Assembly (NCBI RefSeq): GCF_020171315.1
Contig: NZ_JAIUZP010000007.1
Span: 1 to 64,000 of the forward strand
Source: Pseudooceanicola nanhaiensis
GTDB taxonomy: Bacteria; Pseudomonadota; Alphaproteobacteria; Rhodobacterales; Rhodobacteraceae
Length of the DNA stretch: 64,000 nucleotides
Direction of reading: 5' to 3'
The position numbers and the translations under genes were made by a program. The notes beneath the pieces were generated by a model. It saw nothing but the letters and a program-made list of their open reading frames with translations, was not told where the DNA came from and did no database searches. Positions 2,348 to 17,903 of this stretch are shown here, piece after piece (within the stretch, counting starts at the first letter, position 1; each line of letters begins with the position of its first letter).

Positions 2348-3310
2348 TCAGGCCTTGCCGCGCAGCATTTCCTCGACAAGACGTTGCACGTTCAGCGCCT
2401 CCTGCGGGGTGGCGAGCCGGTGCGGCTTGCCCGCGATGGCCAGCAGCAGGTCGTCAAGTTGGGCCCGCAGGGCCACTGCGCGGCGCTCGCCGGGCTTGGC
2501 GGGGACCGGCACGAACGGCCCCCCGTCCGAAACCGCGGCCTCGGAGAAGTTCGAGACCCTGTGGCTCGCCTTCGTGCCTTTCACGGTGAATTCCTGCCGG
2601 TCCGGCTGTGCGCCGCCGACCGAGGCGAGGATCGAGACCGGCACGCCCTCGGCCGTCTCCAGCCGCGCCAGCAGGGCGGTTTCGCACATGGCCGGATCGG
2701 CGGGGTAGCTGGGATGCGCCACGACCACGGACAGCGGGCCAAGGATACGCTGGGTGAAGAAGAGGAAGTGCGAGAGCACCTCGCGGGTCATGCCGCCTTC
2801 GTCGCGGAACCGCAGCCAGTCTGCCGCGACCTGCCAGTCGCGCGGCCATGCGGCATAGGTGACGACGATGTCGACCCCGGCAAGCGCGCCCATGGCGCCG
2901 GACTGCGCCGCCGCGGAGACATCCGCCAGCGCCTCGCCCGCGGCCTGCGTGAAGTTCACCGCCGCCGGGACGCCCGCGGCGGTCAGACTGGCCACCAGCG
3001 CCTCGCTCTCGGCCAGGTCCACCCCCAGCGGCTTCTCGAGGAAGACGGCCTTACCGGCCTCCGCGGCCGCGAGGGCATAGGCCTTGCGCGGGACCGGCGG
3101 GCAGGCGAGGTAGACGAGGTCCGCCTCGGCGATGGCCTCTTCGGCCGATGCGGTGATCCGGGCGCCGGGCGCCATCTCGGCCGCGGCCGCGCAGGCCTCG
3201 GCGGAGGGGTCCCACATGGCCACGGGCGCATAGCCTTCGTGGCGCAGCATGTGTTCCAGCATCCGCCGTCCCATGATCCCGAGGCCGATAATCGCTGTCC
3301 TGACCGCCAT
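2348..3310 (-). CDS. Gfo/Idh/MocA-family NAD(P)-dependent oxidoreductase
   Basis: This 320-residue cytoplasmic dehydrogenase has an N-terminal Rossmann fold with G-L-G-I-M-G at residues 9-14. The family E-K-P motif (F-L-E-K-P-L-G-V) lies near residue 97. A C-terminal alpha/beta substrate domain follows. Relatives oxidise or epimerise sugars, inositols and sugar-nucleotides; the substrate is unknown here. The start at 3310 follows an AGGAG at a good distance, so longer in-frame starts were rejected. It is separated by about 200 bases from the capA-like gene upstream and by about 260 bases from the permease downstream. Membership in the surface-glycan operon upstream is therefore only possible. 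Confidence 0.85.
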   Translation of the reverse strand: MAVRTAIIGLGIMGRRMLEHMLRHEGYAPVAMWDPSAEACAAAAEMAPGARITASAEEAIAEADLVYLACPPVPRKAYALAAAEAGKAVFLEKPLGVDLAESEALVASLTAAGVPAAVNFTQAAGEALADVSAAAQSGAMGALAGVDIVVTYAAWPRDWQVAADWLRFRDEGGMTREVLSHFLFFTQRILGPLSVVVAHPSYPADPAMCETALLARLETAEGVPVSILASVGGAQPDRQEFTVKGTKASHRVSNFSEAAVSDGGPFVPVPAKPGERRAVALRAQLDDLLLAIAGKPHRLATPQEALNVQRLVEEMLRGKA

Positions 3311-3516: not shown

Positions 3517-4722
3517 TCACATCGGGTCAGGCAGGTCGCATTGCGGGTTGGGCCCGGCGGTGCGGGCACAGCAGAGCGCGGCGGCCCGCGGGCCCCAGTT
3601 CGCCCCGAAGCAGGCCAGCCCGGTCGGCTGGTTCGCAAGCGGCGACGGGGTGAAGGCCACCGCATCCGCCCCGACTGACAGGGCCGAGAGCCGGTTCAGG
3701 TGGTCGATCGTACGTCGCAGCCGGTCGCCCGTCACCGGCTCGGGGGCGAGGTGGACGCTGCGCATCGGTGCGGCCTCCAGCGCGGTGATGCGCCAGCCCT
3801 CGGCTCCGGTGCGCTGGAAATAGGCCCGTCCCAGCAGGCCATAGTCCTGTCCCAGCGGGGCGCTGTCCTTCTCGGCCCCGCCGATGAAGAGGAGGTTCCC
3901 CATGGAATAGAAGATCGCCTGTCCCTTCTCGGGGGCGGCCTCCACCGCGCGGACCACGTGGGGATGATGCCCGATGACGAGGTTCACGCCCGCCTCCTCG
4001 ATGCCGCGCCGGAAGAGCGCCCTCTGCCCGGCGTTCAGCTGGATCATGTTCTCGGTCCCGTAGTGGAGCGAGAGAATGCGGATATCGGCCCGCGCATCGC
4101 GCAGCCCGCGCAGGACGGCGGCGAAATCCGAAGGCACGGTGAGATATGTCATCCCAACGTCGTCCCCGGACGGGCGGAAGGCGCCGGAGCCGAAGGAGGC
4201 CGAGGCAAAGGCGACGCGGACACCGTTGAAGGTGCCGATGGCGGGGGTGAAGGCCTCCGCCCCGCGCCCGATCCCGGCAAAGAGCAGGGGCCGCAGGCGG
4301 CTGGCCTGTTCATGGCGGAAGAAAGACAGCGTGTCGCGCAGCCCCTGACGGCCGTGGTCGAAAGCATGGTTGTTGGCCAGCGAGAAGCCGTTCACCCCCA
4401 GATCCATCAGGTGGCGGAAGCTTTCGGGATGGCTGCGGAAGACGAAGGCCTTGGTCGGGCTGCTGGCCCCGTCACGATCCGACACCACCGTCTCGACGTT
4501 GATCAGGTTCAGGTCCGAGGTCCAGTACCGGCTGAGCGCCTCGGTCGCCATCTCGATCGGCAGGGCGCCGAACTTGTGGATCTGGTCGGGCAGGGGCCGC
4601 TGCCGGGACCGGGCGAAGTTCACGTCTCCGCCGAAGGAGACCACCAGTTCCTGCGCCGGGGCTGGCACGGCGGTCAGGAGGGTGAGGACGAGGGGCGCGA
4701 GGGCCCTACTGAAGACCGACAT
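3517..4722 (-). CDS. CapA-family exported metallophosphoesterase-like protein
   Basis: The protein has 401 residues, with a signal peptide ending around A-P-A-Q (residues 21-24). It belongs to the PGA_cap (CapA/PgsA) calcineurin-like family. Visible metal-site motifs are G-G-D-V-N-F (31-36), N-N-H-A-F-D (117-122), L-H-Y-G (219-222) and G-H-H-P-H (251-255). CapA relatives are needed for poly-gamma-glutamate capsules, but many are surface phosphoesterases of unknown substrate. No PGA synthetase genes are nearby. The start overlaps the end of the beta-propeller gene by 17 bases, so the two are translationally coupled. The last 40 residues carry four to five cysteines, unusual for the family. It is the last gene of the putative envelope-glycan operon. 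Confidence 0.8.
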   Translation of the reverse strand: MSVFSRALAPLVLTLLTAVPAPAQELVVSFGGDVNFARSRQRPLPDQIHKFGALPIEMATEALSRYWTSDLNLINVETVVSDRDGASSPTKAFVFRSHPESFRHLMDLGVNGFSLANNHAFDHGRQGLRDTLSFFRHEQASRLRPLLFAGIGRGAEAFTPAIGTFNGVRVAFASASFGSGAFRPSGDDVGMTYLTVPSDFAAVLRGLRDARADIRILSLHYGTENMIQLNAGQRALFRRGIEEAGVNLVIGHHPHVVRAVEAAPEKGQAIFYSMGNLLFIGGAEKDSAPLGQDYGLLGRAYFQRTGAEGWRITALEAAPMRSVHLAPEPVTGDRLRRTIDHLNRLSALSVGADAVAFTPSPLANQPTGLACFGANWGPRAAALCCARTAGPNPQCDLPDPM

Positions 4723-6199
4723 CGACCAGCATCGCCTCCGCGCTCTCGCCTATGGCATAGACATAGCCATTGCGGTTACCCACGTAGATCACGCCGTCCC
4801 AGACGGCGGGGGTGCTTTCCCAGCAGCCCGCGCCCGGCGGATGGAAGCGCCAGACCTCCTTCGGGCGGGCCGGATCGGCGAGGCTGTAGGCCACCATGTC
4901 ACCCGAGCAGGTTCCCAGCAGCAGCTGCCCGCCGACCACCACGGCAGAGGACCAGCCATGCGCCGGGGCCGGGCGCCGGTCGGTCACGAGGCCGGTGGCG
5001 GCCTCGACCGTATAGAGCCCCCCGGCATGGGTCGGCACGTAGAGATGGCCCGCATGAAGCGCGGGGGTCGCCCAGACACCGCCGTCGCCGCCGAAGCTGC
5101 CCTCGAAGGTCAGGGACCAGACGAGGGGCGCGTCGGGCCGCGACGGGTCGAGCCGCGCCAGATGGCCGGAAAGGGCCTTGTCCGGGCTCGGCCGGCGTTC
5201 GTCCTCGACGGCGATGTAGACCTCCCCCTCGGGGCCGCCCACCAGCGTGGCATCGATATCGTCGCCCGCGCGCCATTCCATCACCAACGTCTCGTCGCGC
5301 GGCCTGCCCTGCGTCAGGGCGGCGATGTCATGGCCCTGCACGAGGCCCGCCGAATTCGCGAACCAGACGGTGCCGTTCAACGCCATGGTGGAATTCTCGA
5401 TGCTCGCCGCGCGGTCGCCGACAGCGGCGAAGAGCGCGGGCGTGAACCCGGCGATCCGGTTCACCAGCTCCGGTGTCACGGCGATCCGGCCCTGCGCGTC
5501 TCGGTGCCGGTTCAGCCGGATCACGTGGAACCAGCCGTTTTCGCCACCCTGAAACATCCAGTCGCCGAGGATCAGCGGGCTGGCATCCCAGTCATTGTTC
5601 CAGATCCCGTCGGGGGCGTTCCCGTTCAGCCGCCACAGCTCCTCGGCCCGCTCGGGCCCGAGGCGCAGCACGCGCAGGTAATCGTCCCGCGATCCGGTGT
5701 AGAGCAGCGGCAGCCCCTCCGGGTCGAGCGAGACGGACCCCTTGACGATATCGCCGGTGCGGAAGGCCGCCCGCACCGGCATCCCCGTCGCCCCGTCTAG
5801 GAAATGCACCGCGTGGTCATAGGCGCCAAAGATCACCTCGACCCGGCCGTCGGGGCGAGGCCGGATCGCGGGCTGGCCGGTCCAGCCGGTGCCGCACCAC
5901 GTCCGGGTGCCGTGCTGATCGGTCGAGGGGCCGCAGTAGGGCCCCGCCCGCCAGAGCACCCGGGGCGCGCGCGGCAGGCTGCCGGTGGCATGGCCCGCCC
6001 GGTCCGGCCGCCCGCGAAACGTCAGGATGCCCGGCGCCGGCGGGTGGCCTATGGCAAGCGACAGGGGCAGGGCGGGCCGGAACAGCGCCAGCGTCACGTC
6101 CTGCGCCTGTGCGGCGCGGCCCGAAAGCCCCACCGTCAGCCCCGCCACCAGCAGGCAGGCGAGGAGGACACCCCGCCGGACAATCGCCCAAGCCCTCAC
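4706..6199 (-). CDS. Exported PQQ/WD-like beta-propeller protein
   Basis: The protein has 497 residues and an N-terminal signal peptide (hydrophobic run then A-Q-A, about residue 32). At least five repeats follow with the beta-propeller pattern G-x-V-x-v-G/a-x-x-x-G-x-l-Y-A (for example V-I-Y-V-G-N-R-N-G-Y-V-Y-A near the C-terminus), as in PQQ-repeat or BamB-like domains. The quinoprotein dehydrogenase cofactor and metal residues are not obvious, so a structural or binding role in the periplasm is more likely than catalysis. It overlaps the L,D-transpeptidase gene by 4 bases (ATGA type) and the capA-like gene by 17 bases. Its conserved place between two envelope enzymes suggests a scaffold role; this is inference. 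Confidence 0.75.
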   Translation of the reverse strand: MRAWAIVRRGVLLACLLVAGLTVGLSGRAAQAQDVTLALFRPALPLSLAIGHPPAPGILTFRGRPDRAGHATGSLPRAPRVLWRAGPYCGPSTDQHGTRTWCGTGWTGQPAIRPRPDGRVEVIFGAYDHAVHFLDGATGMPVRAAFRTGDIVKGSVSLDPEGLPLLYTGSRDDYLRVLRLGPERAEELWRLNGNAPDGIWNNDWDASPLILGDWMFQGGENGWFHVIRLNRHRDAQGRIAVTPELVNRIAGFTPALFAAVGDRAASIENSTMALNGTVWFANSAGLVQGHDIAALTQGRPRDETLVMEWRAGDDIDATLVGGPEGEVYIAVEDERRPSPDKALSGHLARLDPSRPDAPLVWSLTFEGSFGGDGGVWATPALHAGHLYVPTHAGGLYTVEAATGLVTDRRPAPAHGWSSAVVVGGQLLLGTCSGDMVAYSLADPARPKEVWRFHPPGAGCWESTPAVWDGVIYVGNRNGYVYAIGESAEAMLVDVGLQ

Positions 6200-7035
6200 G
6201 CGGCATCCCAGAAGAAGACGAAGACCATCCGGTATCCCTCCCGCGTGAGCAGGGCGCCCGAGGCGTCGCGCAGCAACGATCCGTCGCGCACGTACCCCCG
6301 GCGGGGCGTCATCCCGGTGCCCACGGCAGAGGTGAAATAACGCGGGATCTCGCCCCAGAGCGGCGAGGCCGCCCCGCGCACCCCGTCGGGGTGGATCAGG
6401 TTCCAGATCAGGTCGGCGTTGCTCTGCCGCATCCGCACGCAGCCATGGCTGTCGACGCGGCCGAGCTTGCGGTACTGCCCGCTGGTCGTACCGTGGATCG
6501 CCACGCCCGAGGCGCGCCCGCTGGAATAATGCAGGTCGATGTAGAGCGCGTTGTACATCCCCGGCGAGCCCCAGCCGGGCCGGTGCCTGCGGTCATCCAC
6601 GTTGAAGATCCCCAGCGGCGTCGGGCCGGAGCGGCTGTCGCCCGGGTACTTGCGCCCGGTGGAGACGGGCCAGCTGTAGCCCGGCCCGCCATCGGGCATC
6701 TCGCGTCCGCTCCAGTGGCTGTCATCGCTGGCCAGCAGGCTCCAGCCGTCGCCCGCCCGCGCGATCACCCACATCTTCTGGGCATGAGGCCCCGAGGTGG
6801 CGGCGTTGACATAGACGGCGTGGCTGTAGGCCGGGTGCAGCGCGGAGGGGGCGAGATAGGGCGTGCCCGTTGCGGGCGTCACCGCCTCGAGGTAGCGCAG
6901 GGCCGGGTCCGTGCCCGTTCCCGTGCCCGTCGCGGAGGCAGAGGCGTGCAGTCGCCCGGCGACGTGGGCAAGGGCGAGGGCGGCCGTGGCGCCGCGCAGG
7001 AAATTCCGTCGTGAATTGGGTCTGTCCAAAGTCAT
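6196..7035 (-). CDS. Tat-exported L,D-transpeptidase (YkuD domain)
   Basis: The protein has 279 residues. A twin-arginine signal (S-R-R-N-F-L-R-G, residues 8-15) is followed by a hydrophobic stretch. The YkuD catalytic motif is intact: H181-G-T-T-S, then S196-H197-G198-C199-V-R-M, with Cys199 as the nucleophile. Such enzymes make 3-3 peptidoglycan crosslinks or attach proteins to peptidoglycan in the periplasm. Tat export is less usual than Sec export for this family. The gene overlaps the propeller gene by 4 bases and lies 59 bases downstream of the small membrane-protein gene. Placement next to MBOAT/SGNH acylation genes suggests action on the same cell-wall polymer. Confidence 0.9.
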   Translation of the reverse strand: MTLDRPNSRRNFLRGATAALALAHVAGRLHASASATGTGTGTDPALRYLEAVTPATGTPYLAPSALHPAYSHAVYVNAATSGPHAQKMWVIARAGDGWSLLASDDSHWSGREMPDGGPGYSWPVSTGRKYPGDSRSGPTPLGIFNVDDRRHRPGWGSPGMYNALYIDLHYSSGRASGVAIHGTTSGQYRKLGRVDSHGCVRMRQSNADLIWNLIHPDGVRGAASPLWGEIPRYFTSAVGTGMTPRRGYVRDGSLLRDASGALLTREGYRMVFVFFWDAA

Positions 7036-7094
7036 GAGCGTTCTCCCTATGTGGTCTGCTGAAATGTCCTTGATCGAAATGGTCAGTGCCCGGC

Positions 7095-7331
7095 CTAGCC
7101 GAGGCCGGTGGTTGCGTGCAGCCAGCTCCTCAACCGGCCGAAGACATCGCCAAGGCCAAGCGCCGCGCGCCGGTCATCGAGCCACGTCAGCAGGTCGAGC
7201 AGGCGGTCGTCCAGCGGGCCGAGGTCCGGCATCTGGTAGGCCCAGTCGAGGAACCGGTCGCCCGAGAGGACCCAGGCCGCAAGCAGCAAGAGCCAGGTCG
7301 TCACGGTGAAGTTTGTCATCTGGCGGCGCAT
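7095..7331 (-). CDS. Small one-helix membrane protein, unknown function
   Basis: This is a 78-residue protein. A short N-terminus (M-R-R-Q-M-T-N-F) is followed by one hydrophobic segment (T-T-W-L-L-L-L-A-A-W-V-L). A soluble tail follows, rich in Leu, Asp and Arg. I do not recognise the family. The start at 7331 is preceded by a very strong purine tract (GGGAGGAGGAG), whereas the internal Met at 7319 has none. The gene begins 12 bases after the MBOAT stop, which makes co-translation likely. Small membrane partners are known beside MBOAT acyltransferases in other systems (for example DltX with DltB), so a partner role is a reasonable guess. Confidence 0.65.
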   Translation of the reverse strand: MRRQMTNFTVTTWLLLLAAWVLSGDRFLDWAYQMPDLGPLDDRLLDLLTWLDDRRAALGLGDVFGRLRSWLHATTGLG

Positions 7332-7343
7332 CTCCTCCTCCCC

Positions 7344-8735
7344 TCAGAACTGGAAATAGATGAAGGGGGATGTCCCTTCCTGTGCGATGGCAAAGGCGAG
7401 GAACACGCCGGTGCCCAGGGTGAGGGCCTGCGCCGGGGCGGGCAGGCGGCCCAGCACCGCGATGGCGCGCCCCCGCAGGGTCAGCGGGGCCCAGTTCAGC
7501 GCAAGCCCGAGCGCCAGCAGGCCCCAGAGCGCGGGCAGGATCGGCGGGGCCTCTGCCGCCGCCTGACCGAAGAGGGCGCCGAGGTAGTCCCGTACGATGA
7601 TCAGGTCCGGCGCGCGGAACGGCAGCCAGAGCAGCAGAACGATGAGACAGGTCAGGCCCCAGCCGGGCAGGGCGGGCAGGCGCAGGCCCCGCGCCTGGCA
7701 CAGCCGTTCGCCCGCGAGGGCGAGGCCATGCAGCAATCCCCAGAGCAGGAAGGACCACGCGGCCCCGTGCCAGAAGCCCGAGAGCGTGAAACAGGCGATC
7801 AGCACCAGCGCCTGCTGCAACAGGCCGCCCCGGTTTCCGCCAAGCGGGATGTAGAGATAATCGCGGATGTAGGTCGACAGCGAGATGTGCCAGCGGCGCC
7901 AGAAGTCCCGCAGCGAGGTCGCCCGGTAAGGCTGATTGAAGTTGCGCCGGAAGCGGTAGCCCAGCAGAAGCGCCACGCCGATGGCAATGTCCGAATAGCC
8001 CGAGAAATCGCAGTATATCTGGATCGCATATCCCAGCAGCGCGGCCCATGCGGTCAGCGTGTCGAGCTGCAGCGGCGTGGCAAAGGCCGGATCGACCAGC
8101 AGCACGCCAAGGTAGTTGGCGATCACCAGCTTCTTCAGCAGCCCCGTCAGGATCAGCAGCACCGCCTCGCCGCGCTCGCCTGCGCTGGGCGGGTGGGGGG
8201 CGTCGATCTGGGGCAGGAAATCCCGCGCCCGCACGATCGGCCCGGCGACCAGTTGCGGAAAGAACGAGATATAGAGCGCCACGTCCGCCGCGTTGCGCCG
8301 CGCGGGCACATCCCCGCGCGCCACGTCGACGACATAGCTGATGGCCTGAAAGACGTAGAAGGAAATGCCCACCGGCAGGACCAGCCCGACCCAGACCATG
8401 TCCCGCTCCAGTCCCATGCGGGCCAGAAGCTGCGACAGGGAGAGGACGAAGAAATCCGCGTATTTGAAAACCCCCAGCGTCCCCAGCAGGGCCGTGATCG
8501 ACAGGATCAGCACGGGGCGTCGCCAGCCGGGGCGCGTGACCAGCAGCCCGGCCAGCCATGCCACCGCGGTGACGCCGCCCATCAGCAGCAGGAACCGTTC
8601 GTCCCAAGCGCCGTAGAAGACATAGGAGGCGGCGATCAGCATCGCCTTGCGCAGCGCCGGGCGCCCGTCCACGGCGAGGTTGAGGATCAGCACGACGCCG
8701 TAGAACAGGATGAACGCGAGCGTCGGGAACAGCAT
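7344..8735 (-). CDS. MBOAT-family membrane O-acyltransferase (AlgI/PatA type)
   Basis: The protein has 463 residues and about ten membrane segments. AlgI-type signatures are clear: D-F-S-G-Y-S-D-I-A-I-G (243-253), F-W-R-R-W-H283-I-S-L-S, Y-I-P-L-G-G-N-R-G-G, and the catalytic histidine in G-F-W-H323-G-A-A-W. The family moves acetyl groups across the inner membrane for transfer to alginate, peptidoglycan, cellulose or teichoic acid by SGNH partners. Here two SGNH genes lie immediately upstream. The start overlaps the preceding stop by one base (TAATG). The acceptor glycan is unknown; no alginate polymerase genes are present. Confidence 0.92.
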   Translation of the reverse strand: MLFPTLAFILFYGVVLILNLAVDGRPALRKAMLIAASYVFYGAWDERFLLLMGGVTAVAWLAGLLVTRPGWRRPVLILSITALLGTLGVFKYADFFVLSLSQLLARMGLERDMVWVGLVLPVGISFYVFQAISYVVDVARGDVPARRNAADVALYISFFPQLVAGPIVRARDFLPQIDAPHPPSAGERGEAVLLILTGLLKKLVIANYLGVLLVDPAFATPLQLDTLTAWAALLGYAIQIYCDFSGYSDIAIGVALLLGYRFRRNFNQPYRATSLRDFWRRWHISLSTYIRDYLYIPLGGNRGGLLQQALVLIACFTLSGFWHGAAWSFLLWGLLHGLALAGERLCQARGLRLPALPGWGLTCLIVLLLWLPFRAPDLIIVRDYLGALFGQAAAEAPPILPALWGLLALGLALNWAPLTLRGRAIAVLGRLPAPAQALTLGTGVFLAFAIAQEGTSPFIYFQF

Positions 8736-9568
8736 TACTGAAGCGCTGCCAGTTCATCCGTGCGCGGCGACAGGTCGGGAAAATAGCGCACGAGGTCGTC
8801 GAGGATCCGGTCCGCCACCAGCCGGTACCCCCGCAGGTTGAAATGGCTCAGGTCGCCGGTGCGGATCGTGACATTGGTTCCGTTAACGGGGATCGCCCGG
8901 ACGAAACTGCCGTCGTCACCGCCGAAATCCTCTGCCAGCGGCAGGTAGAGCGCCCCGCTGGCCTCCATCTCCTCCTTGAAGATCTGCGCGACCCGCTGCA
9001 GGTGCCGCCCGAGGTTCGCATGACCGTCCGGCGCCGGTCCGAGCCAGAGGATCACCGCGTCGTTGGCCAGGGCGGCCTCGATCACGCGCCGGGTCTCGGC
9101 CCGGTAGGCGGGCTCCCAGCTGTCGGTGCCATAGGTGCCGCGGTTGCCGGGGCGGGTGACGCTCTGCATGTCGTTCGCGCCGAAATGGGCCACGACGAGG
9201 TCGGGCTTCTCGCTGGCCGCGAGGCTCTCGAAGGTGGCGGGCCAGTCGTAGAAATCCGCGCGTGCCAGCCCGCTCGAGACCCGGCCCCGTTCGAGCACGC
9301 GCAGGTTCAGACCGCGTTCGGCGGCGCGCTGGCTCAACCCCTGCCCGAAGCCTTGAGAGAGGCTGTCGCCGATGACCATCAGACGTGCGGGCTGTTCGGC
9401 GGTGAAGACCCGCGCGGGGCGGTGCGCCATCTGGCTGCGCTGCGGCTTGGCCGGGTCGGTCAGCCGTTGGCCGAGGTCCTGCGCCGGGGCGACCGCGCAG
9501 CCCGAGACCTGAAGCACGCCCAGAAGCAGCAGCGTCGCTGCGGCCCGTCTACTGAAGGATAAGCTCAT
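8735..9568 (-). CDS. SGNH/GDSL-family lipoprotein (DUF459-like), probable acyl-transfer partner
   Basis: The protein has 277 residues from the Met at 9568; an upstream in-frame extension overlaps the preceding gene and was rejected. The N-terminus is a lipoprotein signal with lipobox V-S-G-C24. Block I is I-G-D-S69-L-S and block III is G-A-N-D. The catalytic pair is G-D239-L-S-H242-F. DUF459/SGNH proteins act in the periplasm as O-acetyl-transferases or esterases on glycans. The 20-base overlap with the upstream SGNH gene and the one-base overlap with the MBOAT gene argue for one complex. Whether it transfers or removes acyl groups cannot be decided from sequence. Confidence 0.85.
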   Translation of the reverse strand: MSLSFSRRAAATLLLLGVLQVSGCAVAPAQDLGQRLTDPAKPQRSQMAHRPARVFTAEQPARLMVIGDSLSQGFGQGLSQRAAERGLNLRVLERGRVSSGLARADFYDWPATFESLAASEKPDLVVAHFGANDMQSVTRPGNRGTYGTDSWEPAYRAETRRVIEAALANDAVILWLGPAPDGHANLGRHLQRVAQIFKEEMEASGALYLPLAEDFGGDDGSFVRAIPVNGTNVTIRTGDLSHFNLRGYRLVADRILDDLVRYFPDLSPRTDELAALQ

Positions 9569-10331
9569 TGAGGTTCGTCTCCAGGTCGCCGGTCTTGAGG
9601 CGCTGTTCCATTTCCTGGCTGAAGACGTCCACAACCATGTCGTAGCCGCGCTCGCTGAAGTGGATGCGATCCGAGGCGCGCAGCTGGGTCAGCGTGTCGC
9701 CGAGCGTGACGCTCTGCACGTAGCCGCCGGTGCCGAACTGCGTTTCCTCGTGCATGTCGACGAAGAGCGTCTGCTTGTCCGAGGCGGCGCGTTCCTGCAC
9801 CACGGCGGCCTGCAGGGCCGACACGCGGCTGTAGGGCCCTTCAAGCTTGTCATCCCCGACGATCGGCAGGCCGAGCCAGATCACGTTGTCGGAAATGCCC
9901 CGGGCGGCGGTCAGCAGCGCCCGCGCCCGGTCGCTGTAGAGCGTATCCCAATCGGGCGTGTCAAAGACGGCGCGGCCGCCATCGGTGCGGATCGCGCGGA
10001 TGTCGTTGGCGCCCACCTGGATCACCACGAGGTCGGTCCGGGCGGCGCCGCCGATGCCGCCGGTCAGCCGGCCGCTCCAGGCGCTCGGATCGGACTTGGC
10101 AAGGCCGTCGCCCACCTCTGTCACGCGGTAGAGATCGAGCGTGTCGCAGCCCAGCCAGCCCCGGAACATGGCGCCCCAAACCCCGTCGGCGAGGCTGTCG
10201 CCCAGAACGGCAACGCGGGTTTCGGTCTGCGGGCAGAAGAGCGTGTCGGCGGAGGCCTGCGTGCCGCTTAGGCCGCAGGTCAGGCCAAGGGCAAGCACGC
10301 CGCCGCGCAGGAATGATGTCAGAGCGGTCAT
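9549..10331 (-). CDS. Exported SGNH/GDSL-family hydrolase or acyltransferase
   Basis: The protein has 260 residues, with a Sec signal peptide ending near T-Q-A-S-A-D (about residue 28). SGNH blocks are L-G-D-S46-L-A, a Gly-containing block II, V-G-A-N-D and S-D-R-I-H-F with the C-terminal Asp/His. Cysteines at 33 and about 77 could form a disulfide. It differs strongly in sequence from the adjacent lipoprotein SGNH, so the two are probably not redundant. It starts six bases after the large CxxC-repeat gene and overlaps the next gene by 20 bases. Confidence 0.85.
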   Translation of the reverse strand: MTALTSFLRGGVLALGLTCGLSGTQASADTLFCPQTETRVAVLGDSLADGVWGAMFRGWLGCDTLDLYRVTEVGDGLAKSDPSAWSGRLTGGIGGAARTDLVVIQVGANDIRAIRTDGGRAVFDTPDWDTLYSDRARALLTAARGISDNVIWLGLPIVGDDKLEGPYSRVSALQAAVVQERAASDKQTLFVDMHEETQFGTGGYVQSVTLGDTLTQLRASDRIHFSERGYDMVVDVFSQEMEQRLKTGDLETNLNELILQ

Positions 10332-10337
10332 CCTGTC

Positions 10338-12620
10338 TTATCCCTGCTGCCGGAAGCTGTCGGCATAGGCGCGGATCGCACCCACGGTGCCGGGGCCGTT
10401 CAGCCCGTCCACCCGGCCGCTGTAGACCCCTTCGTCCTGCAGTTTCTGCTGGATCGCCCGGATCACGAGCGAGGGCCGTTCGCCCAACTGGTCGGTCAGC
10501 CGGGCCACGGCCACGCTGTCGCGCTCCTTCAGGCCGGACAGAAGCAGCTCCGCCGCCTTGTCGGGATCGGCTGAAATCGCATCGCCGCGCTCGTAGATCT
10601 CGGCCAGGAAAGGCTTGGCGCGGACATAGCCCTTGTCGGCGGCCAGTTTCAGCGAGTCATAGGCGCCCTGTTCATCGACCGGCAGCCCGATGCCGTTCAG
10701 CTTGAAGTAGCCCAGGAAGAACTCCCCGACGATATTGCCGTCCTCTGCTGCATCCGCCGCGATCAGCGCGGCCTCGGACTGGTCATGCCCGGCGACGAGG
10801 TTGCGCGAGTAGAGCAGCATCAGGATTTCCTTCGACAGCCAGTCACCCTTCGCGGCACCGCCACGGGCAAGGGCCGCGGCGGCCTCGAAATCGGGGCCCT
10901 GTCCGGCGGGCGGGTTGAAGCGCATATAGGCGCTCAGCCCGTAGGCCTCACTCACATCCGCCCCGACGCCCTCGTCATAGGCGGCCTTGGCGGCCTCCAG
11001 CATCCCATCGGCCTGGTCGATCCGGGCCGCGATCACCTTGAGGCGCGGGTTGGCAGGCAGGGCTGCCACGGCCGCGTCACAGGCCTCGCGCGCCGCGCTG
11101 CGATTGATGTCCGCCAGCTGGCGCGGGCCGCCGAACTGGGGCAGTCCGGCCGCGGCCACGCAGGGGCCGATCAGCGTTTCGGCCTCGATCAGGGCGGCAA
11201 GCTCGGCCTCGGCCTCATCGCGGCGGTCACAGGTGGCGCAGGTCTCCAGCCAGGTCTCCAGCGCGGTGCGGTCGCGGCTTTCCAGCGCGTCCAGAAGCGA
11301 GGCGGTTTCGACACGATAGGCGGCATCGGCCTCGATGGTGGTGATCAGCGTGCGCGCCTCGTCGCGGAAATCGCAGGCGACGCAGCCGGTGGCATAGCCG
11401 CGCAGCCACGTCAGGTCCCGCAACTCGGCAAAGCGCCGGAAATCGGCCGCCTCCGCCGCGCGGGCCGCGTCGCGTGCCGCGATCTCGGCGATGGCGGTTT
11501 CGGCCTCGTCCCGGAATTCGCAAAGTTGGCAGTTGCTCAGGTAGATCTGCAGCCGGTCCGGCATCGCATCCTCGCGGATGCCAGCCCAGATTTCCGCCTC
11601 CAGCTGGCGTTTCATCTCTTCCTGCCGCCGCAGCGCCAGTTCGTCGGTCAACTCGCGCTCGTTGGGGCAGAAGACGCAATCCTCAAGGAAGGCGCCGACC
11701 TTGTCGGTCTCGCCGGAGCCGAGCAGGAACTTGGCCTCGAAGCTCTCGAAATAGACCTGGCTTTCCAGATCGCGGGAGAGCGCACCCGGCACGCTGAGCG
11801 CGACGGTCTTGCCGTCCTCCGCATCCGCCCGCACCACGAGCGCATAGGTGTTGCCGCAGTCCGCGTTGCGCCGCCCCGGACGGGCGAGGGCATCGGTCAG
11901 CCAGCGGGAGGCCTCGGCGGCACTGGTCTGGCCGTCTCCGTCACCGAAGGGCTGACGATCGGCCAGACCGGCGACCAGAGCGGTGGCGGGTTCCACGGCG
12001 GGGCCACAGCCCTCAGCCCGGGCGCCGATTTCGGCGACGACCATTGCAAAGCCGCTGCTGGCCACGGTTTTCTGGAATTCGGTCACATGGGCCGCAAAGA
12101 CATTCGCGGGATCCGACAGCCGGAAGAAGGCGATCTGGCGATATTCCGGCGCGACGGCCTTGATCACGCCGGAGAGCCGATTGCCGAATTCATCGAGCGC
12201 CATTTCCTCGCCGCCAATGTCGATCGCGAGGCCCGATTGCGGGGCAACAGTGCCATCGGCCGGCGCGCTGCCGGGGTCCGAGAGGGAAATGGCTCCGTCG
12301 AGCGTGACGAAGAGCTGATCCGTATTGCCGCCCAACTCGTCCGAATTGGCGACGAAGGTGGAAATCGTGTTCGACCGCAGGATCGTCGAGAGGAACGCGA
12401 CCTTGGCTTGATCCTCCGTCGGCAGTCTCGGCATGATCAATTGGGAAATGCCACCGAGATCTTTACCGATTTCAACCGGTTGCGACCCGAATTGCAGAAC
12501 CCGTGTCGATGGCTCGGCGTTTGCGGTCTGCGCGAGAATGGGACCGGAAAGTGTGGTGAAAGCGCAAAGACCAAGCGAGAACAAAGCACTAATAGAGCGC
12601 ATCGGCATGACTTTTCTCAT
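10338..12620 (-). CDS. Large exported protein with four CxxC repeats, Sel1-like region and C-terminal peptidoglycan-binding-like domain
   Basis: The protein has 760 residues if the ATG at 12620 is used; a TTG at 12641 and ATGs at 12608 and 12602 are alternatives and no start has a clear ribosome site. After a signal peptide (about 1-35, ending near T-A-N-A) comes a poorly recognised domain (40-300). Four tandem units follow with cysteine pairs at 315/318, 364/367, 413/416 and 461/464, spaced 49, 49 and 48 residues. Units two to four share C-x-x-C-x-x-R-D-E-A. Residues 540-700 resemble Sel1/TPR repeats. Residues 715-760 resemble a PG_binding_1 domain (I-Q-x-x-L, G-x-x-D-G, G-x-x-T-x-x-A-I). 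It is the first gene of the eight-gene operon. The N-domain may be a decayed caspase-like fold, but I cannot show this. Confidence 0.75.
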   Translation of the reverse strand: MRKVMPMRSISALFSLGLCAFTTLSGPILAQTANAEPSTRVLQFGSQPVEIGKDLGGISQLIMPRLPTEDQAKVAFLSTILRSNTISTFVANSDELGGNTDQLFVTLDGAISLSDPGSAPADGTVAPQSGLAIDIGGEEMALDEFGNRLSGVIKAVAPEYRQIAFFRLSDPANVFAAHVTEFQKTVASSGFAMVVAEIGARAEGCGPAVEPATALVAGLADRQPFGDGDGQTSAAEASRWLTDALARPGRRNADCGNTYALVVRADAEDGKTVALSVPGALSRDLESQVYFESFEAKFLLGSGETDKVGAFLEDCVFCPNERELTDELALRRQEEMKRQLEAEIWAGIREDAMPDRLQIYLSNCQLCEFRDEAETAIAEIAARDAARAAEAADFRRFAELRDLTWLRGYATGCVACDFRDEARTLITTIEADAAYRVETASLLDALESRDRTALETWLETCATCDRRDEAEAELAALIEAETLIGPCVAAAGLPQFGGPRQLADINRSAAREACDAAVAALPANPRLKVIAARIDQADGMLEAAKAAYDEGVGADVSEAYGLSAYMRFNPPAGQGPDFEAAAALARGGAAKGDWLSKEILMLLYSRNLVAGHDQSEAALIAADAAEDGNIVGEFFLGYFKLNGIGLPVDEQGAYDSLKLAADKGYVRAKPFLAEIYERGDAISADPDKAAELLLSGLKERDSVAVARLTDQLGERPSLVIRAIQQKLQDEGVYSGRVDGLNGPGTVGAIRAYADSFRQQG

Positions 12621-12894: not shown

Positions 12895-15153
12895 TCAGGC
12901 GTCCTGCGCCGCCACCTGAACCAGCGCGGTATGGGCGCTGCTGCCCTGTGCGAGGCGCGAGGTGCCCACGTCCTTCGTCAGCACGTTGGGGTTGCCGTGC
13001 GGGTCGATATTGCCGCCGGGATCGCCGAACCATGCGCCGGTGGGCAGGGCCACGACACCGGGGCGGATGTCCTCGCTCACCTGCGCACGGGCGCGCACGG
13101 CGCCGCGGGCGTTGAAGACCCGCAGCAGCATGCCGCTTTCGATCCCGCGCGGGGCGGCATCGGCGGGGTGGATCAGCAGCGTCTCGGGCCGGGCGCCGGG
13201 CCGGTCGGCCAGTGCGGCCTCCAGCTGGCTGTGCAGCTTGTCGCCCGGTTGCGGCGAGACGAGGTGCAGCGGCGTGGCCTCGCAGGCAGTGCCCAGCCAT
13301 TCGCTGGGCGGCAGCCAGACCGGATGGCCCGGGCAATCGTCGTAGCCGAAGCCGTCGATCTTTTCCGAGAAGATTTCGATCCGGCCCGAGGGCGTCTTGA
13401 GCGCTGCCCCCTCCGGATCGGCCCGGAAGCGCGACAGAACCGTCTCCTGATGCCCGGTCAGGAGGATCGGCAGGCGGACCCAGTTCTTTTCCCGCAGGCC
13501 CTCCAGCGTGGGAACGTCGATCCCGTCGGCCTGCGCGCGGTCGTGGTAATCGGCATAGAGCGCCTCGATCCATTCGGTCGAACTCAGGCCCTCGGTGAAC
13601 ACCGCCTCCACATCGCCTTTCATCCGCGCGGCGATCCCGGCGAAGATGTCGTAATCGTCGCGGGCCTCGGCCACGGGCGGGATCATCTGCGGCATGTGGA
13701 AGAGGTATTCATCCATCGAAGACCGCCCGATGTCCTCCCGCTCGTAGGACGTGGTGGCCGGGAAGACGATGTCGGCGCGTTTCGCCGTGGGCGTCCACCA
13801 GATCTCGTTCACGAGGATCGTCTCGGGCCGCTGCCAGGCCGCATGCAGGGCGTTCAGGTCCTGATGGTGGTGGAACGGGTTGCCGCCGGCCCAGTAGATC
13901 AGCCGGATATCGGGGTAGGGGCCGCGCCGCCCGTTGAAGTCATAGTCCTGCCCGGGGTTGCGCAGCATGTCGGCGATCCGCGCCACGGGGATCACGGTGG
14001 AGACCGCGTTGTCGCCCTGCGGCAGGGTCATCCCGCCCATCCGGCGCAGCACCTTGCCCACGCCGCCGATCGCGCCGTAGCCATAGCCGACACCGCCGCC
14101 GGGCAGGCCGATCTGGCCCAGCATCGCCGCCAGAACGGCGGACATCCAGTAGGGTTGCTCCCCATGTTCGCCGCGCTGCAGGGACCATGCCACGGTGATC
14201 AGCGTGCGGCCCGCCGCCATCCGGCGCGCCAGCGTGCGGATCGCCTCGGCATCGCAGCCACAGATCGGGGCGGCCCACTCGGGCGTCTTGGGCGTGCCGT
14301 CGCTCTCGCCCATCAGGTAGGGGCGGAACTGCGCGAAGCCGGTGCTGTAGCGCTCGAGGAAGGCATGATCCGTCAGCCCCTCGTCCTCAAGCACATAGGC
14401 CAGTGCCAGCATCAGCGCCGTGTCCGAGGCGGGCGTCAGGGGCAGCCAGTCGCAGCCCTCGGGGGCGTCCACCCGCTGCGGGCCGACGTTGAGACAATAG
14501 GTGCCCTTGGCCAGCAGTTTGGTAATCCAGCCCGCCGTGCCATGCTCCGTCACGCCGCCCATGGAGACCTGCGAGTTCTTGGGATTGATCCCCCCGAACA
14601 TCACGATGGTATCGGTGTGGTCGTGGATCACCTCCCAGCTGTCCTGATTGTCGTAAATCAGGCTCAGGAAGTTCTCGCCGAAGACATGGGGCATGATCGA
14701 CTGGGCGCAGCCGGTGGAATAGCTGCCGAAGGAGGCGACATAGCCGCCCATGGCGTTCAGGAAGCGGTGGACCTGGCTCTGCGCATGGTGGAACCGCCCG
14801 GCGGAGGACCAGCCGTAGGAGCCGCCAAAGATCGCCTCGTTGCCGTGGGCCTTGCGCACGCGGTCCAGTTCCTGCGCCGCGATCTCCAGCGCCTCGTCCC
14901 AGGGCAGGTCGACGAAATCATCGCTGCCGCGGCCCTCCTTGCGGCGGCCTTCAAGCCAGCCGCGCCGGATCGCGGGGCGCTGGATGCGCGTGGCATGATG
15001 CACGGCGGCGGGGATGACATAGGGCACCGCATGGGGGTTCGGGTCATCGGCGAAGGGCCTGGCGGCCACGATGCGGTCGCCCTCCACGTCCACCTCGAAG
15101 GCGCCCCAGTGGCTGGATGTCACTTTCGTCTGTCGTTGCGATCCATCGGCCAT
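12895..15153 (-). CDS. Cytoplasmic molybdopterin oxidoreductase of the BisC/TorA/DMSO-reductase family
   Basis: The protein has 752 residues. N-terminal motifs are those of S/N-oxide reductases: G-S-Y-G-W-S-S-A-G-R-F-H-H (111-123) and S-Y-S146-T-G-C-A-Q, where the Ser is the expected Mo ligand. There is no N-terminal [4Fe-4S] Cys motif, as usual for DMSO/TMAO/biotin-sulfoxide reductases. No Tat or Sec signal is present, which points to a cytoplasmic BisC-like enzyme reducing biotin- or methionine-sulfoxide-type compounds. The start at 15153 has AGGAG eight bases upstream; a longer frame to 15246 was rejected. It is divergent from the ABC transporter operon, with a shared 220-base control region carrying a 17-bp palindrome. 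Confidence 0.85.
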   Translation of the reverse strand: MADGSQRQTKVTSSHWGAFEVDVEGDRIVAARPFADDPNPHAVPYVIPAAVHHATRIQRPAIRRGWLEGRRKEGRGSDDFVDLPWDEALEIAAQELDRVRKAHGNEAIFGGSYGWSSAGRFHHAQSQVHRFLNAMGGYVASFGSYSTGCAQSIMPHVFGENFLSLIYDNQDSWEVIHDHTDTIVMFGGINPKNSQVSMGGVTEHGTAGWITKLLAKGTYCLNVGPQRVDAPEGCDWLPLTPASDTALMLALAYVLEDEGLTDHAFLERYSTGFAQFRPYLMGESDGTPKTPEWAAPICGCDAEAIRTLARRMAAGRTLITVAWSLQRGEHGEQPYWMSAVLAAMLGQIGLPGGGVGYGYGAIGGVGKVLRRMGGMTLPQGDNAVSTVIPVARIADMLRNPGQDYDFNGRRGPYPDIRLIYWAGGNPFHHHQDLNALHAAWQRPETILVNEIWWTPTAKRADIVFPATTSYEREDIGRSSMDEYLFHMPQMIPPVAEARDDYDIFAGIAARMKGDVEAVFTEGLSSTEWIEALYADYHDRAQADGIDVPTLEGLREKNWVRLPILLTGHQETVLSRFRADPEGAALKTPSGRIEIFSEKIDGFGYDDCPGHPVWLPPSEWLGTACEATPLHLVSPQPGDKLHSQLEAALADRPGARPETLLIHPADAAPRGIESGMLLRVFNARGAVRARAQVSEDIRPGVVALPTGAWFGDPGGNIDPHGNPNVLTKDVGTSRLAQGSSAHTALVQVAAQDA

Positions 15154-15279
15154 CTGTCGTCTCCTGTTGCGCGGCGCGACCCTACTGCCGGGCCCCGCCG
15201 GGGGGAAGCGGGCGCGCTGCAAAGGCCGCCCTGCGCGGGGGGCCATTCCCTTGCGCTGCCCGAAGCCTGTGCGACGACT

Positions 15280-15373: not shown

Positions 15374-16897
15374 ATGAATTTCCGCTTGCGCGCTCTTGGC
15401 GCTGCAAGTGCCATTGCACTTGCCCTGTCCTTCGGACCGGCCCACGCCGGCAAGAACGACGACACGCTTCGCGCCGCCATGGCCGAAGAGATCCTGAACC
15501 TCGATTACAACTACACCACCAAGCGCGAGTATATCATCCTCGCACAGCTGACCGATGCCACGCTCTTCACCATCGACCCGGTGTCGCAGGAGGTGCAGCC
15601 CTCCATCGCGACGGCCTATGACTTCGTCGATGACACCACGCTGGACGTGACCCTGCGCGAGGACGTCAAGTTCCACGACGGCAGCACCCTGACGGCCGAG
15701 GACGTGGCCTACAGCTACAACTGGATCAAATCCCCCGAGAGCGAGTCGAATGCCACCGGCGTCGTCTCCCGCTGGCTGGAGAACGCCGAGGTCGTGGCGC
15801 CGAACAAGGTGCGCTTCCACCTTGCCTCGGTCTATCCGCTGGTGATCCGCGACATGGCGAACCGGATCATGATCCGCAAGGCCGGGACCTATGACGCCAA
15901 CGGCACGATCAACCGCGACGCCATGGCGAGCGACCTGATCGCGACGGGCCCCTACAAGGTCACCTCCTTCGAGCCGGGCACCGAACTGGTGCTGGAACGC
16001 TTCGAGGATTACTTCGGCGACAAGCCCGCGATCCAGAAGATCATCGTGCGCAACATCCCCGACGTGGGCACCCAGCAGGCCGAACTGATGTCGGGCGGCG
16101 TGGACTGGATGTTCAAGGTGCCGCTCGATCTGGCCGAGAGCCTCGGCAAGACACCGATGGCCTCGCATCTCAGCGGCGCGGACCTGCGGGTGGGCTTCAT
16201 CGTGCTCGACGCCCATGGCTACACCGACCCGGAAGGCCCGCTAACCGATGTCCGTGTGCGACAGGCGATCAACCACGCGCTGAACACCGAGGAGATGGCG
16301 AAGTACCTGATCGGCGGCTCTGCCGAGGCGATCCACACCGCCTGCCACCCGGCGCAGTTCGGCTGTGACCAATCCGTCACCGCCTATCCCTACGACCCCG
16401 AGAAGGCAAAGGCCCTGCTGGCCGAGGCAGGCTTTGCCGATGGCTTCCCGCTGGAGCTCTGGGCCTATCGCGACAAGGCCGCGGCCGAAGCGGTGGCAGC
16501 GGACCTGACCGCTGTGGGCATCAAGGTAGACCTGCGCTACGTCAAGCTGGAGAGCCTGAACCAGGCCCGCGCGGCCCGTGACATCCCCGCCTATTTCGGC
16601 ACCTGGGGCTCGGGCGGCACGGCGGATACGGCGGCCATCGCGCGCATCCACTTCTCCGACAGCGACCGCAACATGTCGGGCGACGCCGACCTCGAGGCGC
16701 TGGTCCTCTCGGCCGAACAGACGGCGGATCAGGAGAAGCGCAAGGAGATCTACTCCGAGGCGCTGGGCAAGATCGCGGACGAAGCCTACTGGGCGCCGCT
16801 CTTCACCTATTCGGCGAACTACCTCGTCTCGCCGGACCTCGACTTCCCGCTTGATCCGGACGGGCTGCCCCGCCTGCAGCACGCCAGCTGGAAATGA
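15374..16897 (+). CDS. Solute-binding protein, ABC peptide/nickel-type (SBP_bac_5)
   Basis: The protein has 507 residues with a signal peptide ending at A-H-A (about residue 25). Cluster C (family 5) features are a V-x-F-H-D-G-S-T-L-T-A-E-D-V-x-x-S block near residue 100 and the late D-P-E-K-A-K-A-L-L-A-E-A-G-F block near residue 345. Such proteins deliver peptides, opines, glycosides or other organics to DppBCDF-type importers. A strong GGGAGG site precedes the ATG. It is the first gene of a five-gene transport operon that ends in a lyase, so the substrate may be the lyase's precursor rather than a peptide. Confidence 0.9.
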   Translation: MNFRLRALGAASAIALALSFGPAHAGKNDDTLRAAMAEEILNLDYNYTTKREYIILAQLTDATLFTIDPVSQEVQPSIATAYDFVDDTTLDVTLREDVKFHDGSTLTAEDVAYSYNWIKSPESESNATGVVSRWLENAEVVAPNKVRFHLASVYPLVIRDMANRIMIRKAGTYDANGTINRDAMASDLIATGPYKVTSFEPGTELVLERFEDYFGDKPAIQKIIVRNIPDVGTQQAELMSGGVDWMFKVPLDLAESLGKTPMASHLSGADLRVGFIVLDAHGYTDPEGPLTDVRVRQAINHALNTEEMAKYLIGGSAEAIHTACHPAQFGCDQSVTAYPYDPEKAKALLAEAGFADGFPLELWAYRDKAAAEAVAADLTAVGIKVDLRYVKLESLNQARAARDIPAYFGTWGSGGTADTAAIARIHFSDSDRNMSGDADLEALVLSAEQTADQEKRKEIYSEALGKIADEAYWAPLFTYSANYLVSPDLDFPLDPDGLPRLQHASWK

Positions 16898-16904
16898 CGG
16901 GGGC

Positions 16905-16927
16905 GGCGGGGCCCGCGCGGCCCCGCC
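16905..16927 (+). other. Stem-loop between binding-protein and permease genes
   Basis: A 9-bp perfect stem (GGCGGGGCC/GGCCCCGCC) with a five-base loop starts eight bases after the binding-protein stop. It lacks a T-tract. It probably protects the upstream mRNA or partly reduces read-through, so that binding protein exceeds membrane subunits. Confidence 0.6.
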
Positions 16928-16985
16928 AGACCGACCGATCCCAGCTCGCCTGACCTCGCCCGCCTGATCCCAGCCGGAGACCACA

Positions 16986-17903
16986 ATGCTCAGATACATC
17001 GCGCTCAGGGGGCTCCTCGCCCTGCTCGTGGCCTTTACCGTGTCGCTTGCCGCCTTCTTCCTTCTCAACGTCGCCACCGACCCGGCACAGGCCATCGCCG
17101 GCGAGGATGCCACCCCCGATGTGGTGGAGGCGATCCGCGCCCGATACGGGCTCGACCAGCCGATGCCGGTGCGCTACGCCGAATGGCTCGGCGGGGTGCT
17201 TCAGGGCGATTTCGGGGAAAGCTACTACTGGCACAAGCCGGTGGCGGAACTGGTCGTCGACCGCGCCGATGAGACCCTGACACTGGCGTTTTCGGCTCTT
17301 GCAGTCACCATCCTTATCGCCATTCCGTTGGGTGCGCTCGCCGCGCTGAACCCCAACAGCTGGATTGACCGCTTCGCCCTCGGCGTGGCCGTCTCGGCGC
17401 AGGCGGTGCCGAACTTCTGGCTGGGGCTGATCATGATCATCCTCTTCGGCGTCATGGTCCCGATCTTCCCGGTTTCGGGCGATGACACATGGCGCCACTT
17501 CGTCCTGCCGGCCTTCGTGCTGGGGGCCTCTTCCGTGCCCGCCGTCATGCGGCTGACGCGCACCGGCCTGATCGAGGTCATGGGCGCCGACTACATCCGC
17601 ACTGCACGGGCCAAGGGCTTCCGCGGCTGGCCGCTGCTGCAACGCCATGCGCTGCGCAACGCGCTGCTGCCGGTGATCTCGGTCCTGGCGGTGCAACTGG
17701 GCCAGAAATTCGGCGGCTCCGTCATCACCGAAAGCATCTTTGCCATCAACGGGCTGGGACGGCTGGCACTGGAATCGATCCTCGGCGCGGACATCCCGAC
17801 CGTGCAGATGCTGATCTTCGTCTTTGCCATCGTCTTCGTCGCCATGAACCTGCTCGCCGACATCCTGAATGCGGCGCTTGACCCGAGGATCCGGATCGGA
17901 TGA
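16986..17903 (+). CDS. ABC transporter permease, DppB type
   Basis: This 305-residue inner-membrane protein has six predicted helices. The BPD_transp_1 coupling motif appears as Y-I-R-T-A-R-A-K-G-F, followed by R-H-A-L-R-N-A-L-L-P, about residues 200-225. The N-terminal domain with G-L-D-Q-P-x-P-V-R-Y is typical of DppB/OppB. It overlaps the next permease gene by four bases (ATGA). It is partner of the 17900 permease and the fused ATPase. Confidence 0.92.
   Translation: MLRYIALRGLLALLVAFTVSLAAFFLLNVATDPAQAIAGEDATPDVVEAIRARYGLDQPMPVRYAEWLGGVLQGDFGESYYWHKPVAELVVDRADETLTLAFSALAVTILIAIPLGALAALNPNSWIDRFALGVAVSAQAVPNFWLGLIMIILFGVMVPIFPVSGDDTWRHFVLPAFVLGASSVPAVMRLTRTGLIEVMGADYIRTARAKGFRGWPLLQRHALRNALLPVISVLAVQLGQKFGGSVITESIFAINGLGRLALESILGADIPTVQMLIFVFAIVFVAMNLLADILNAALDPRIRIG

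What the first reader, a model, noticed from the sequence alone, without database searches (positions are those of the whole stretch)
3517..12620. Eight-gene envelope-glycan O-acylation/remodelling operon of unusual composition
Seen: eight co-directional genes with overlaps or short gaps. In order they encode a CxxC-repeat exported protein, SGNH, SGNH lipoprotein, MBOAT, a 78-aa membrane protein, a Tat L,D-transpeptidase, a beta-propeller and a CapA-like phosphoesterase. Known: MBOAT plus SGNH pairs O-acetylate alginate, peptidoglycan, cellulose or teichoic acids. I know of no described system that joins these to an L,D-transpeptidase, a propeller and a CapA protein. Inference: a complex that modifies and anchors a surface polymer, with the repeat protein as scaffold. 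No polymer synthase is present, so the acceptor may be peptidoglycan itself.
Basis: partly seen in the sequence, partly recalled or inferred. Interest (0 to 1): 0.7.

Follow-up and report, generated by a model that had tools for sequence, protein, structure and literature searches.

The report
Split cell-wall acylation operon with scaffold
A bacterium carries an operon that most likely attaches acetyl-like groups to its cell wall with a known pair of enzymes, but with the membrane anchor of one enzyme split off as a tiny separate protein and a probable wall-binding scaffold added, which would make an open question about when the wall is modified testable.

Summary
The eight-gene, tightly packed operon is real (minus strand, 12620→3517). 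B-C-D-E form an MBOAT–SGNH acyltransferase of the PatA/PatB kind: D keeps the MBOAT histidine and ends in the acyl-shuttle hexapeptide FIYFQF, C is a PatB-like DUF459 lipoprotein, B a second DUF459 SGNH. The 78-aa protein E is the surprise: its module lies downstream of the MBOAT in 23 of 27 members of one MBOAT clade and 0 of 99 others, and in two of the 23 it is fused to a PatB-like SGNH. E looks like a PatB-type membrane module split off as a microprotein. A is a caspase-fold domain without the catalytic dyad, four invariant CxxC repeats, a Sel1 solenoid and a borderline peptidoglycan-binding motif: a likely scaffold. LDT and CapA travel as an add-on: the same 6 of 198 family genomes have both, all with A; 4 of 21 genus-mates have A–E with no F–H beside it; the propeller is in 3 of 198. 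Most likely function: O-acetylation of peptidoglycan, in some lineages linked to cross-link remodelling. The acceptor is inferred, not shown. New variant of a known kind.

The parts
10338..12620 (-). Gene A: exported probable scaffold. Caspase-fold N-domain without the catalytic dyad, four CxxC helical repeats, Sel1 solenoid, C-terminal PG_binding_1-like motif
   Evidence: possible start ATGs at 12620, 12608 and 12602
9549..10331 (-). Gene B: exported DUF459 SGNH enzyme (GDSL, GAND, D..H intact)
8735..9568 (-). Gene C: PatB-like DUF459 SGNH lipoprotein, probable acyl-Ser transferase
   Evidence: lipobox pattern in 8 of 8 homologues tested
7344..8735 (-). Gene D: MBOAT with WHG histidine and C-terminal FIYFQF acyl-shuttle hexapeptide; only PF03062 match of the genome
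7095..7331 (-). Gene E: 78-aa single-TM microprotein, stand-alone version of a PatB-type N-terminal membrane module
6196..7035 (-). Gene F: Tat-type exported L,D-transpeptidase (YkuD, SHGC motif intact)
4706..6199 (-). Gene G: exported PQQ/BamB-type beta-propeller, lineage-restricted accessory
3517..4722 (-). Gene H: exported CapA/PGA_cap protein with conserved GD, NxE, NNHxxDHG, HxGTE and GHHPH motifs; only PGA_cap match of the genome
12621..12894 (-). Intergenic stretch upstream of A, presumed promoter region (no sigma-70-like match found)

Best explanation
An envelope O-acyltransferase of the PatA/PatB kind whose acceptor is most likely peptidoglycan. D takes an acetyl (or other acyl) group from a cytoplasmic donor with its WHG histidine and loads it on the tyrosine of its periplasmic C-terminal FIYFQF. 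The acyl-Tyr passes it to the active serine of the PatB-like lipoprotein C, which puts it on the glycan. B, a second DUF459 SGNH, is either a relay (as is thought for AlgJ and AlgX; recalled) or the removing esterase (as Ape1 is for PatB). E docks on D as the N-terminal helices of PatB are modelled to do, so the tethering module is a separate subunit and the transferase is free to reach the wall. A binds peptidoglycan by its C-terminus and holds the SGNH enzymes by its Sel1 solenoid, as AlgK holds AlgX. F (3-3 cross-linking or stem-peptide exchange), H, CapA2 and G are an optional wall-remodelling module. Shown by sequence: families, motifs, the E module, gene orders. Inferred: acyl group, acceptor, all protein contacts, roles of B, G and H.
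Against: No acceptor or acyl group is shown. PatB equivalog scores are far under the cut-off (76 and 44 vs 580 bits). E shows no detectable similarity to the N-terminus of the one bona fide PatB tested (2%); without the TM part E vs fused N-termini gives only 5.6%, though still above all 60 shuffles; as single sequences only 3 of 28 module members score above the best of 50 long ORFs downstream of MBOATs. PatB's hydrophobic-wall residue before the catalytic His is Ser in C and in 9 of 11 other rows (the two others, L032 and L116, may be B-type), and PatB's block-II Ser is Gly in the window's B although Ser in its 8 close relatives, so the roles of B and C are open. PG_binding_1 in A is just under its cut-off. 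One A homologue (L221, 33% identity) stands alone near a gene that looks Wzc-like by eye. F-H are not beside four A-E clusters.
Confidence: 0.58

Rival explanations
1. The acceptor is a secreted or outer-membrane polysaccharide, not peptidoglycan. The operon works like AlgI-AlgJ-AlgX-AlgK, with A as the AlgK-like solenoid, B and C as the two SGNH steps, and the polymer made elsewhere in the genome.
For: One MBOAT with two SGNH proteins and a Sel1 solenoid is the alginate layout (recalled; AlgKX complex from the abstract of PMC9734138); AlgK/AlgKX are among the fold matches of A; an A homologue lies near a gene that looks Wzc-like by eye in L221; the genome has 17 GT2 matches elsewhere.
Against: I recognised no polymer synthase by eye in the flanks listed (12 loci; the flanking ORFs were not run against family libraries); DUF459 is the PatB family in the SGNH review (passages of PMC9487903); A carries a PG_binding-type C-terminus; six clusters carry an L,D-transpeptidase.
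Confidence: 0.25
2. Two functionally separate units share one transcript: an A-E acyltransferase, and an F-(CapA2)-G-H envelope module with its own job. Co-location reflects co-regulation or joint horizontal transfer only.
For: A-E with no F-H beside it in 4 of 21 genus-mates; G187 keeps A, F and H, with B and C not found and D at most a fragment; G213 has B-C-D-E-CapA2 only; the largest gap of the operon, 59 nt, is at the E-F joint.
Against: F and H orthologues do not occur without A in the 198 genomes searched; in L214 E and F overlap (11126-11129) and in L215 they lie 17 nt apart.
Confidence: 0.35
3. B is the esterase and C the transferase of a deposit-and-remove cycle (PatA-PatB-Ape1 logic) rather than two relay steps.
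For: C is closer to PatB (74 vs 30 bits); the window's B has the ordinary block-II Gly of hydrolases; a PatA-PatB-Ape1 three-gene operon is described (passage of PMC12148441).
Against: The 8 close relatives of B have the transferase-type Ser there, and B, not C, keeps PatB's hydrophobic wall residue; the SGNH review appears to class Ape1 in another family (passage of PMC9487903, cut off at that point).
Confidence: 0.4

Closest known systems
PatA-PatB-Ape1 peptidoglycan O-acetylation (Neisseria, Campylobacter; PMC12148441, abstract and passages seen)
   Same: MBOAT with C-terminal FXYXXF and His; DUF459 SGNH partner; no polymer synthase alongside; second SGNH in the cluster
   Different: A PatB-type membrane module is a separate 78-aa protein, the SGNH is a lipoprotein encoded upstream of the MBOAT, a Sel1/PG-binding-type protein is added, and F-H are added in some lineages; equivalog score not met
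DltB-DltX-DltD teichoic acid D-alanylation
   Same: MBOAT plus single-TM microprotein plus separate transferase
   Different: In Dlt the shuttle tyrosine sits on DltX; here it sits on the MBOAT and E has no FXYXXF. PMC12148441 says the other MBOAT/SGNH pathways lack a DltX-like microprotein
AlgI-AlgJ-AlgX-AlgK alginate acetylation (PMC9734138: part of the abstract and one passage seen; layout otherwise recalled)
   Same: One MBOAT, two SGNH proteins, Sel1/TPR solenoid
   Different: No synthase recognised alongside, DUF459 SGNH, PG_binding-type C-terminus on the solenoid
Alphaproteobacterial caspase (Peptidase_C14)-Sel1-PG_binding proteins
   Same: Same domain order as A; A matches them over its C-terminal part
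   Different: A lacks the GHG His and D-A-C-R Cys motifs and has CxxC repeats; the N-domain and the CxxC region alone give no profile match (0.15% and 4%)

Membership tests
MBOAT-SGNH acyltransferase with fused acyl shuttle (PatA type) | MBOAT family with catalytic His | tested here: met
   124 bits PF03062; WHG present in D and in 126 of 126 full-length MBOATs
MBOAT-SGNH acyltransferase with fused acyl shuttle (PatA type) | C-terminal FXYXXF | tested here: met
   FIYFQF; 126 of 126, so not diagnostic of PatA
PatB (DUF459) peptidoglycan O-acetyltransferase | DUF459 SGNH with Ser-Asp-His and block III Asn | tested here: met
   C 170 bits, B 119 bits; motifs
PatB (DUF459) peptidoglycan O-acetyltransferase | NCBIfam NF045704 equivalog cut-off (580 bits) | tested here: not met
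   C 76, B 44 bits
PatB (DUF459) peptidoglycan O-acetyltransferase | Block II Gly replaced by Ser/Asn | tested here: met
   met by C (Ser); not by the window's B (Gly), whose 8 close relatives have Ser
PatB (DUF459) peptidoglycan O-acetyltransferase | Hydrophobic wall (Ile/Val before His; Leu250) | tested here: inconclusive
   Leu aligned in both; residue before His is Ser in C, Ile in B
PatB (DUF459) peptidoglycan O-acetyltransferase | Covalent N-terminal TM module | tested here: not met
   C has a lipobox instead; a related module is the separate protein E
PatB (DUF459) peptidoglycan O-acetyltransferase | Transfers acetyl to MurNAc C-6 | not testable with these tools
   needs wall chemistry
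DltX microprotein | C-terminal FXYXXF on the microprotein | tested here: not met
   E ends TTGLG; no stand-alone E homologue shown ends in the motif
Active caspase (Peptidase_C14) | His-Cys dyad motifs | tested here: not met
   No D[AS]CR in the first 320 residues of 18 rows; a GHG string in 1 of 18 (P0015), first 300 residues
Caspase fold | Fold of the N-domain | tested here: met
AlgK-like Sel1 scaffold | Sel1 solenoid that binds an SGNH acetyltransferase | tested here: inconclusive
   Sel1 fold found, AlgK not among the best rows; binding not testable
YkuD L,D-transpeptidase | HGT...SHGC[IV]RM | tested here: met
   6 of 6 rows
PGA_cap (CapA) | Pfam cut-off and metal-site motifs | tested here: met
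   155 bits; motifs conserved in the 6 H rows (that these bind metal is recalled); poly-gamma-glutamate synthase partners not searched

The most novel reading that the evidence does not exclude
An architecture of MBOAT-SGNH wall acylation that I found nowhere described: PatB is split into a dedicated MBOAT-docking microprotein (E) and a free lipoprotein transferase (C), and a dead caspase/CxxC/Sel1/PG-binding scaffold (A) recruits the transferase to mature, cross-linked peptidoglycan, where in some lineages a dedicated Tat-type L,D-transpeptidase and CapA-type proteins remodel the same strands. Acylation and 3-3 cross-linking would then be one coupled process.
Probability: 0.28. Interest if true: 0.75.

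Novelty: new variant of a known kind. Interest (0 to 1): 0.57.

Why it matters
PMC12148441 (passages seen) leaves open whether PatAB modifies new or mature, cross-linked peptidoglycan, and notes that PatB has no canonical carbohydrate-binding domain to target it to the wall. It also states that non-Dlt MBOAT/SGNH pathways lack a DltX-like microprotein. This operon appears to supply both missing parts as separate genes, so each can be deleted without touching the catalysts. It also gives a genetic link between wall acylation and L,D-transpeptidation, and a natural fused-versus-split comparison for what the PatB membrane region does.

Tried and rejected
Rejected: a fixed eight-gene machine (modular in relatives). 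Rejected: E as DltX (no FXYXXF; the shuttle is on D). Rejected: block II as a clean test that B is an esterase; the window's Gly looked diagnostic until relatives showed Ser. Rejected: A as an active protease. Tried without result: E against the PatB N-terminus of L255 (2%); A's N-domain against real caspase domains by profile (0.15%) and A's CxxC region against their repeat region (4%), so the caspase link rests on the fold and on the shared C-terminal part; sigma-70 scan (0 promoters; 5 terminator-like hits against 3.9 expected, none at the operon's end); F against PDB sequences (0 matches); literature listings for PatB in Alphaproteobacteria (0 papers), MBOAT with transpeptidase or PGA cap (nothing relevant in the 12 of 58 listed), MBOAT with DltX or microprotein, O-acetylated peptidoglycan, Rhodobacter and MBOAT (8 of 16 listed), PgsA/CapA (8 of 36 listed). 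The statement that I found this combination nowhere described rests, mostly on listings, in an open-access library only.

Caveats on counts. The A search scored at most 3 candidates per genome. The 198- and 295-genome sets are draws from a larger family; of the window's genus their listings show only G006 besides the window's own, so F-H were not searched genome-wide in the four genus-mates with A-E. The 27-member MBOAT clade was defined as the smallest clade holding the labelled members (support 0.56; 0.97 with one more member, L105), and 21 of its 23 hits come from loci that fed the profile; the independent part of the test is 2 held-out hits inside and 0 of 99 outside. The 50 control ORFs include the fused L040 and some spurious frames. 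Tree rows under 420 aa, with X or identical were dropped; among the dropped, L071 and the gapped L119 do not show FXYXXF at the end of the frame read, L119 having it in the next frame.
Full report
OBSERVATION. The eight genes lie on the minus strand between 12620 and 3517 with junctions of +6, −20, −1, +12, +59, −4 and −17 nt. Pfam gives DUF459/SGNH for B and C, MBOAT for D, YkuD for F, a PQQ/BamB-like propeller (sub-threshold) for G and PGA_cap for H; A has only sub-threshold Sel1 and PG_binding_1, E nothing. D is the only MBOAT (PF03062) and H the only PGA_cap match of the genome; F is one of eight YkuD matches. None of the 17 GT2 matches of the genome is on this contig.

GENE ORDER IN RELATIVES. 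In G101 (L214) and G125 (L216 + L217, two contigs) the order is A-B-C-D-E-F-CapA2-G-H; in G111 (L215) A-B-C-D-E-F-CapA2-H; in G194 (L219 + L220, two contigs) A-B-C-D-E-F and CapA2-H. CapA2 is a second PGA_cap protein (178 bits in L215) that the window lacks. In G187 (L218) A, F and H remain, E is a weak match, B and C are not found, D is at most a doubtful fragment, and a 258-aa ORF without a clear family lies before H; this genome has another, more distant MBOAT elsewhere (42%). G213 (L254) has B-C-D-E-CapA2. Four of 21 genus-mates (G003, G009, G017, G021) have A-B-C-D-E, followed by an opposed gene. G215 (L221) has A without the others beside it. Orthologues of F (54% identity or more) and of H (58% or more) occur in the same 6 of 198 family genomes, the window's own included, and all six have A. 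G has strong matches in 3 of 198 and marginal ones in 2 more. Close D (60% or more) is in 6 of 295, any MBOAT match in 62 of 295. The window's A and D are closer to those of another genus (A 48%, D 63%, G101) than to its genus-mates (A about 37%, D 59–60%), and the flanks listed differ, which suggests horizontal movement (inference).

ACYLTRANSFERASE CORE. D keeps the MBOAT His and ends FIYFQF. In PatA the Tyr of this FXYXXF motif is auto-acetylated from acetyl-CoA, and PatB can take acetyl from the acetylated peptide (PMC12148441; abstract and passages seen). All 126 full-length MBOATs that I aligned end this way and contain WHG, so the motif gives the mechanism, not the family. C is the better PatB match (7trr/7tjb at 74 bits) and has a lipobox pattern in 8 of 8 homologues tested. 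B matches the same structures at 30 bits. Two PatB features were tested. Block II: C has the transferase-type Ser; B has Gly in the window but Ser in its 8 close relatives. Wall residue before the catalytic His: Ile/Val in B and its 8 close relatives, Ser in C and in 9 of 11 other rows. So both could be transferases, and which one touches the polymer is open; I favour C at about 0.6 on overall similarity.

THE MICROPROTEIN E. E reads as one TM helix followed by a conserved tail; two short helices in the tail are my reading of the sequence, no model was made. The ORF straight after the MBOAT in Sphingomonas, a Caulobacteraceae MAG, Parvibaculum and others is a 93–157-aa protein of the same layout, and in L040 and L077 it is a 348–362-aa protein with this layout fused to DUF459 (more such proteins). 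Profile comparison: E versus small ORFs 83.9%, E versus fused N-termini 68.8%, small ORFs versus fused 96.6%. With the tail columns of E shuffled and the TM kept, 0 of 60 reach either score; maxima 1.3% and 5.0%. With the TM part removed, E versus small ORFs is 75% and E versus fused only 5.6%, each above all 60 shuffles. Single sequences are weak: 3 of 28 (L032, L042, P0040) exceed the best of 50 long ORFs downstream of MBOATs. A profile of all three groups finds the module within 700 nt of the MBOAT in 23 of 27 clade members, two of them not in the profile, and in 0 of 99 MBOATs outside the clade; L033, L036, L039 and L058 lack it. PatB's N-terminus is described as a TM helix plus two amphipathic helices, modelled to contact PatA and dispensable for catalysis in vitro (PMC12148441). 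E fits that description, but no sequence similarity to the one neisserial-type PatB tested was detected. The paper says that non-Dlt MBOAT/SGNH pathways lack a microprotein; this clade would be an exception in architecture.

THE F–H MODULE. F has the complete SHGC motif and a conserved twin-arginine start in 6 of 6 rows; H keeps the family motifs in 6 of 6 rows. The solved structures that H matches are called poly-gamma-glutamate synthesis protein (39 bits). A role on gamma-D-Glu-containing stem peptides is conceivable but only inference. G has no assigned activity.

VERDICT. A PatAB-like envelope acyltransferase in a split, scaffolded variant, with an optional wall-remodelling module. Mechanism of acyl transfer: about 0.85. 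Peptidoglycan as acceptor: about 0.6. Functional coupling to F–H: about 0.4.

Noticed in passing
L223:9831-17460: A caspase-like-Sel1-type gene (same protein as L140) sits directly after a gene pair that, by eye, reads like two-partner secretion (large exported adhesin-like protein and its transporter).
   Followed up: no
L218:8219-13098: Decayed copy of the cluster in G187: B and C not found, D at most a fragment, E weak, A, F and H open, a 258-aa ORF of no clear family where relatives have CapA2; NRPS-like ORFs (by eye) upstream.
   Followed up: partly
L221:7348-9498: A homologue of A (33% identity) without the other cluster genes beside it, in a region with a gene that looks Wzc-like by eye (16290-17999).
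   Followed up: partly
L034:1768-5726 and L116:9224-13318: Other alphaproteobacterial MBOAT clusters carry a DUF459-like SGNH, then a 450-480-aa protein with a GDSL-like motif, then the MBOAT and the small TM module: a wider set of unexplored acylation clusters.
   Followed up: partly
window 2348-3310 and 12895-15246: Neighbours on the same strand: Gfo/Idh/MocA oxidoreductase downstream and a molybdopterin oxidoreductase-like ORF (by eye) upstream; not seen beside the cluster in the relatives listed.
   Followed up: no
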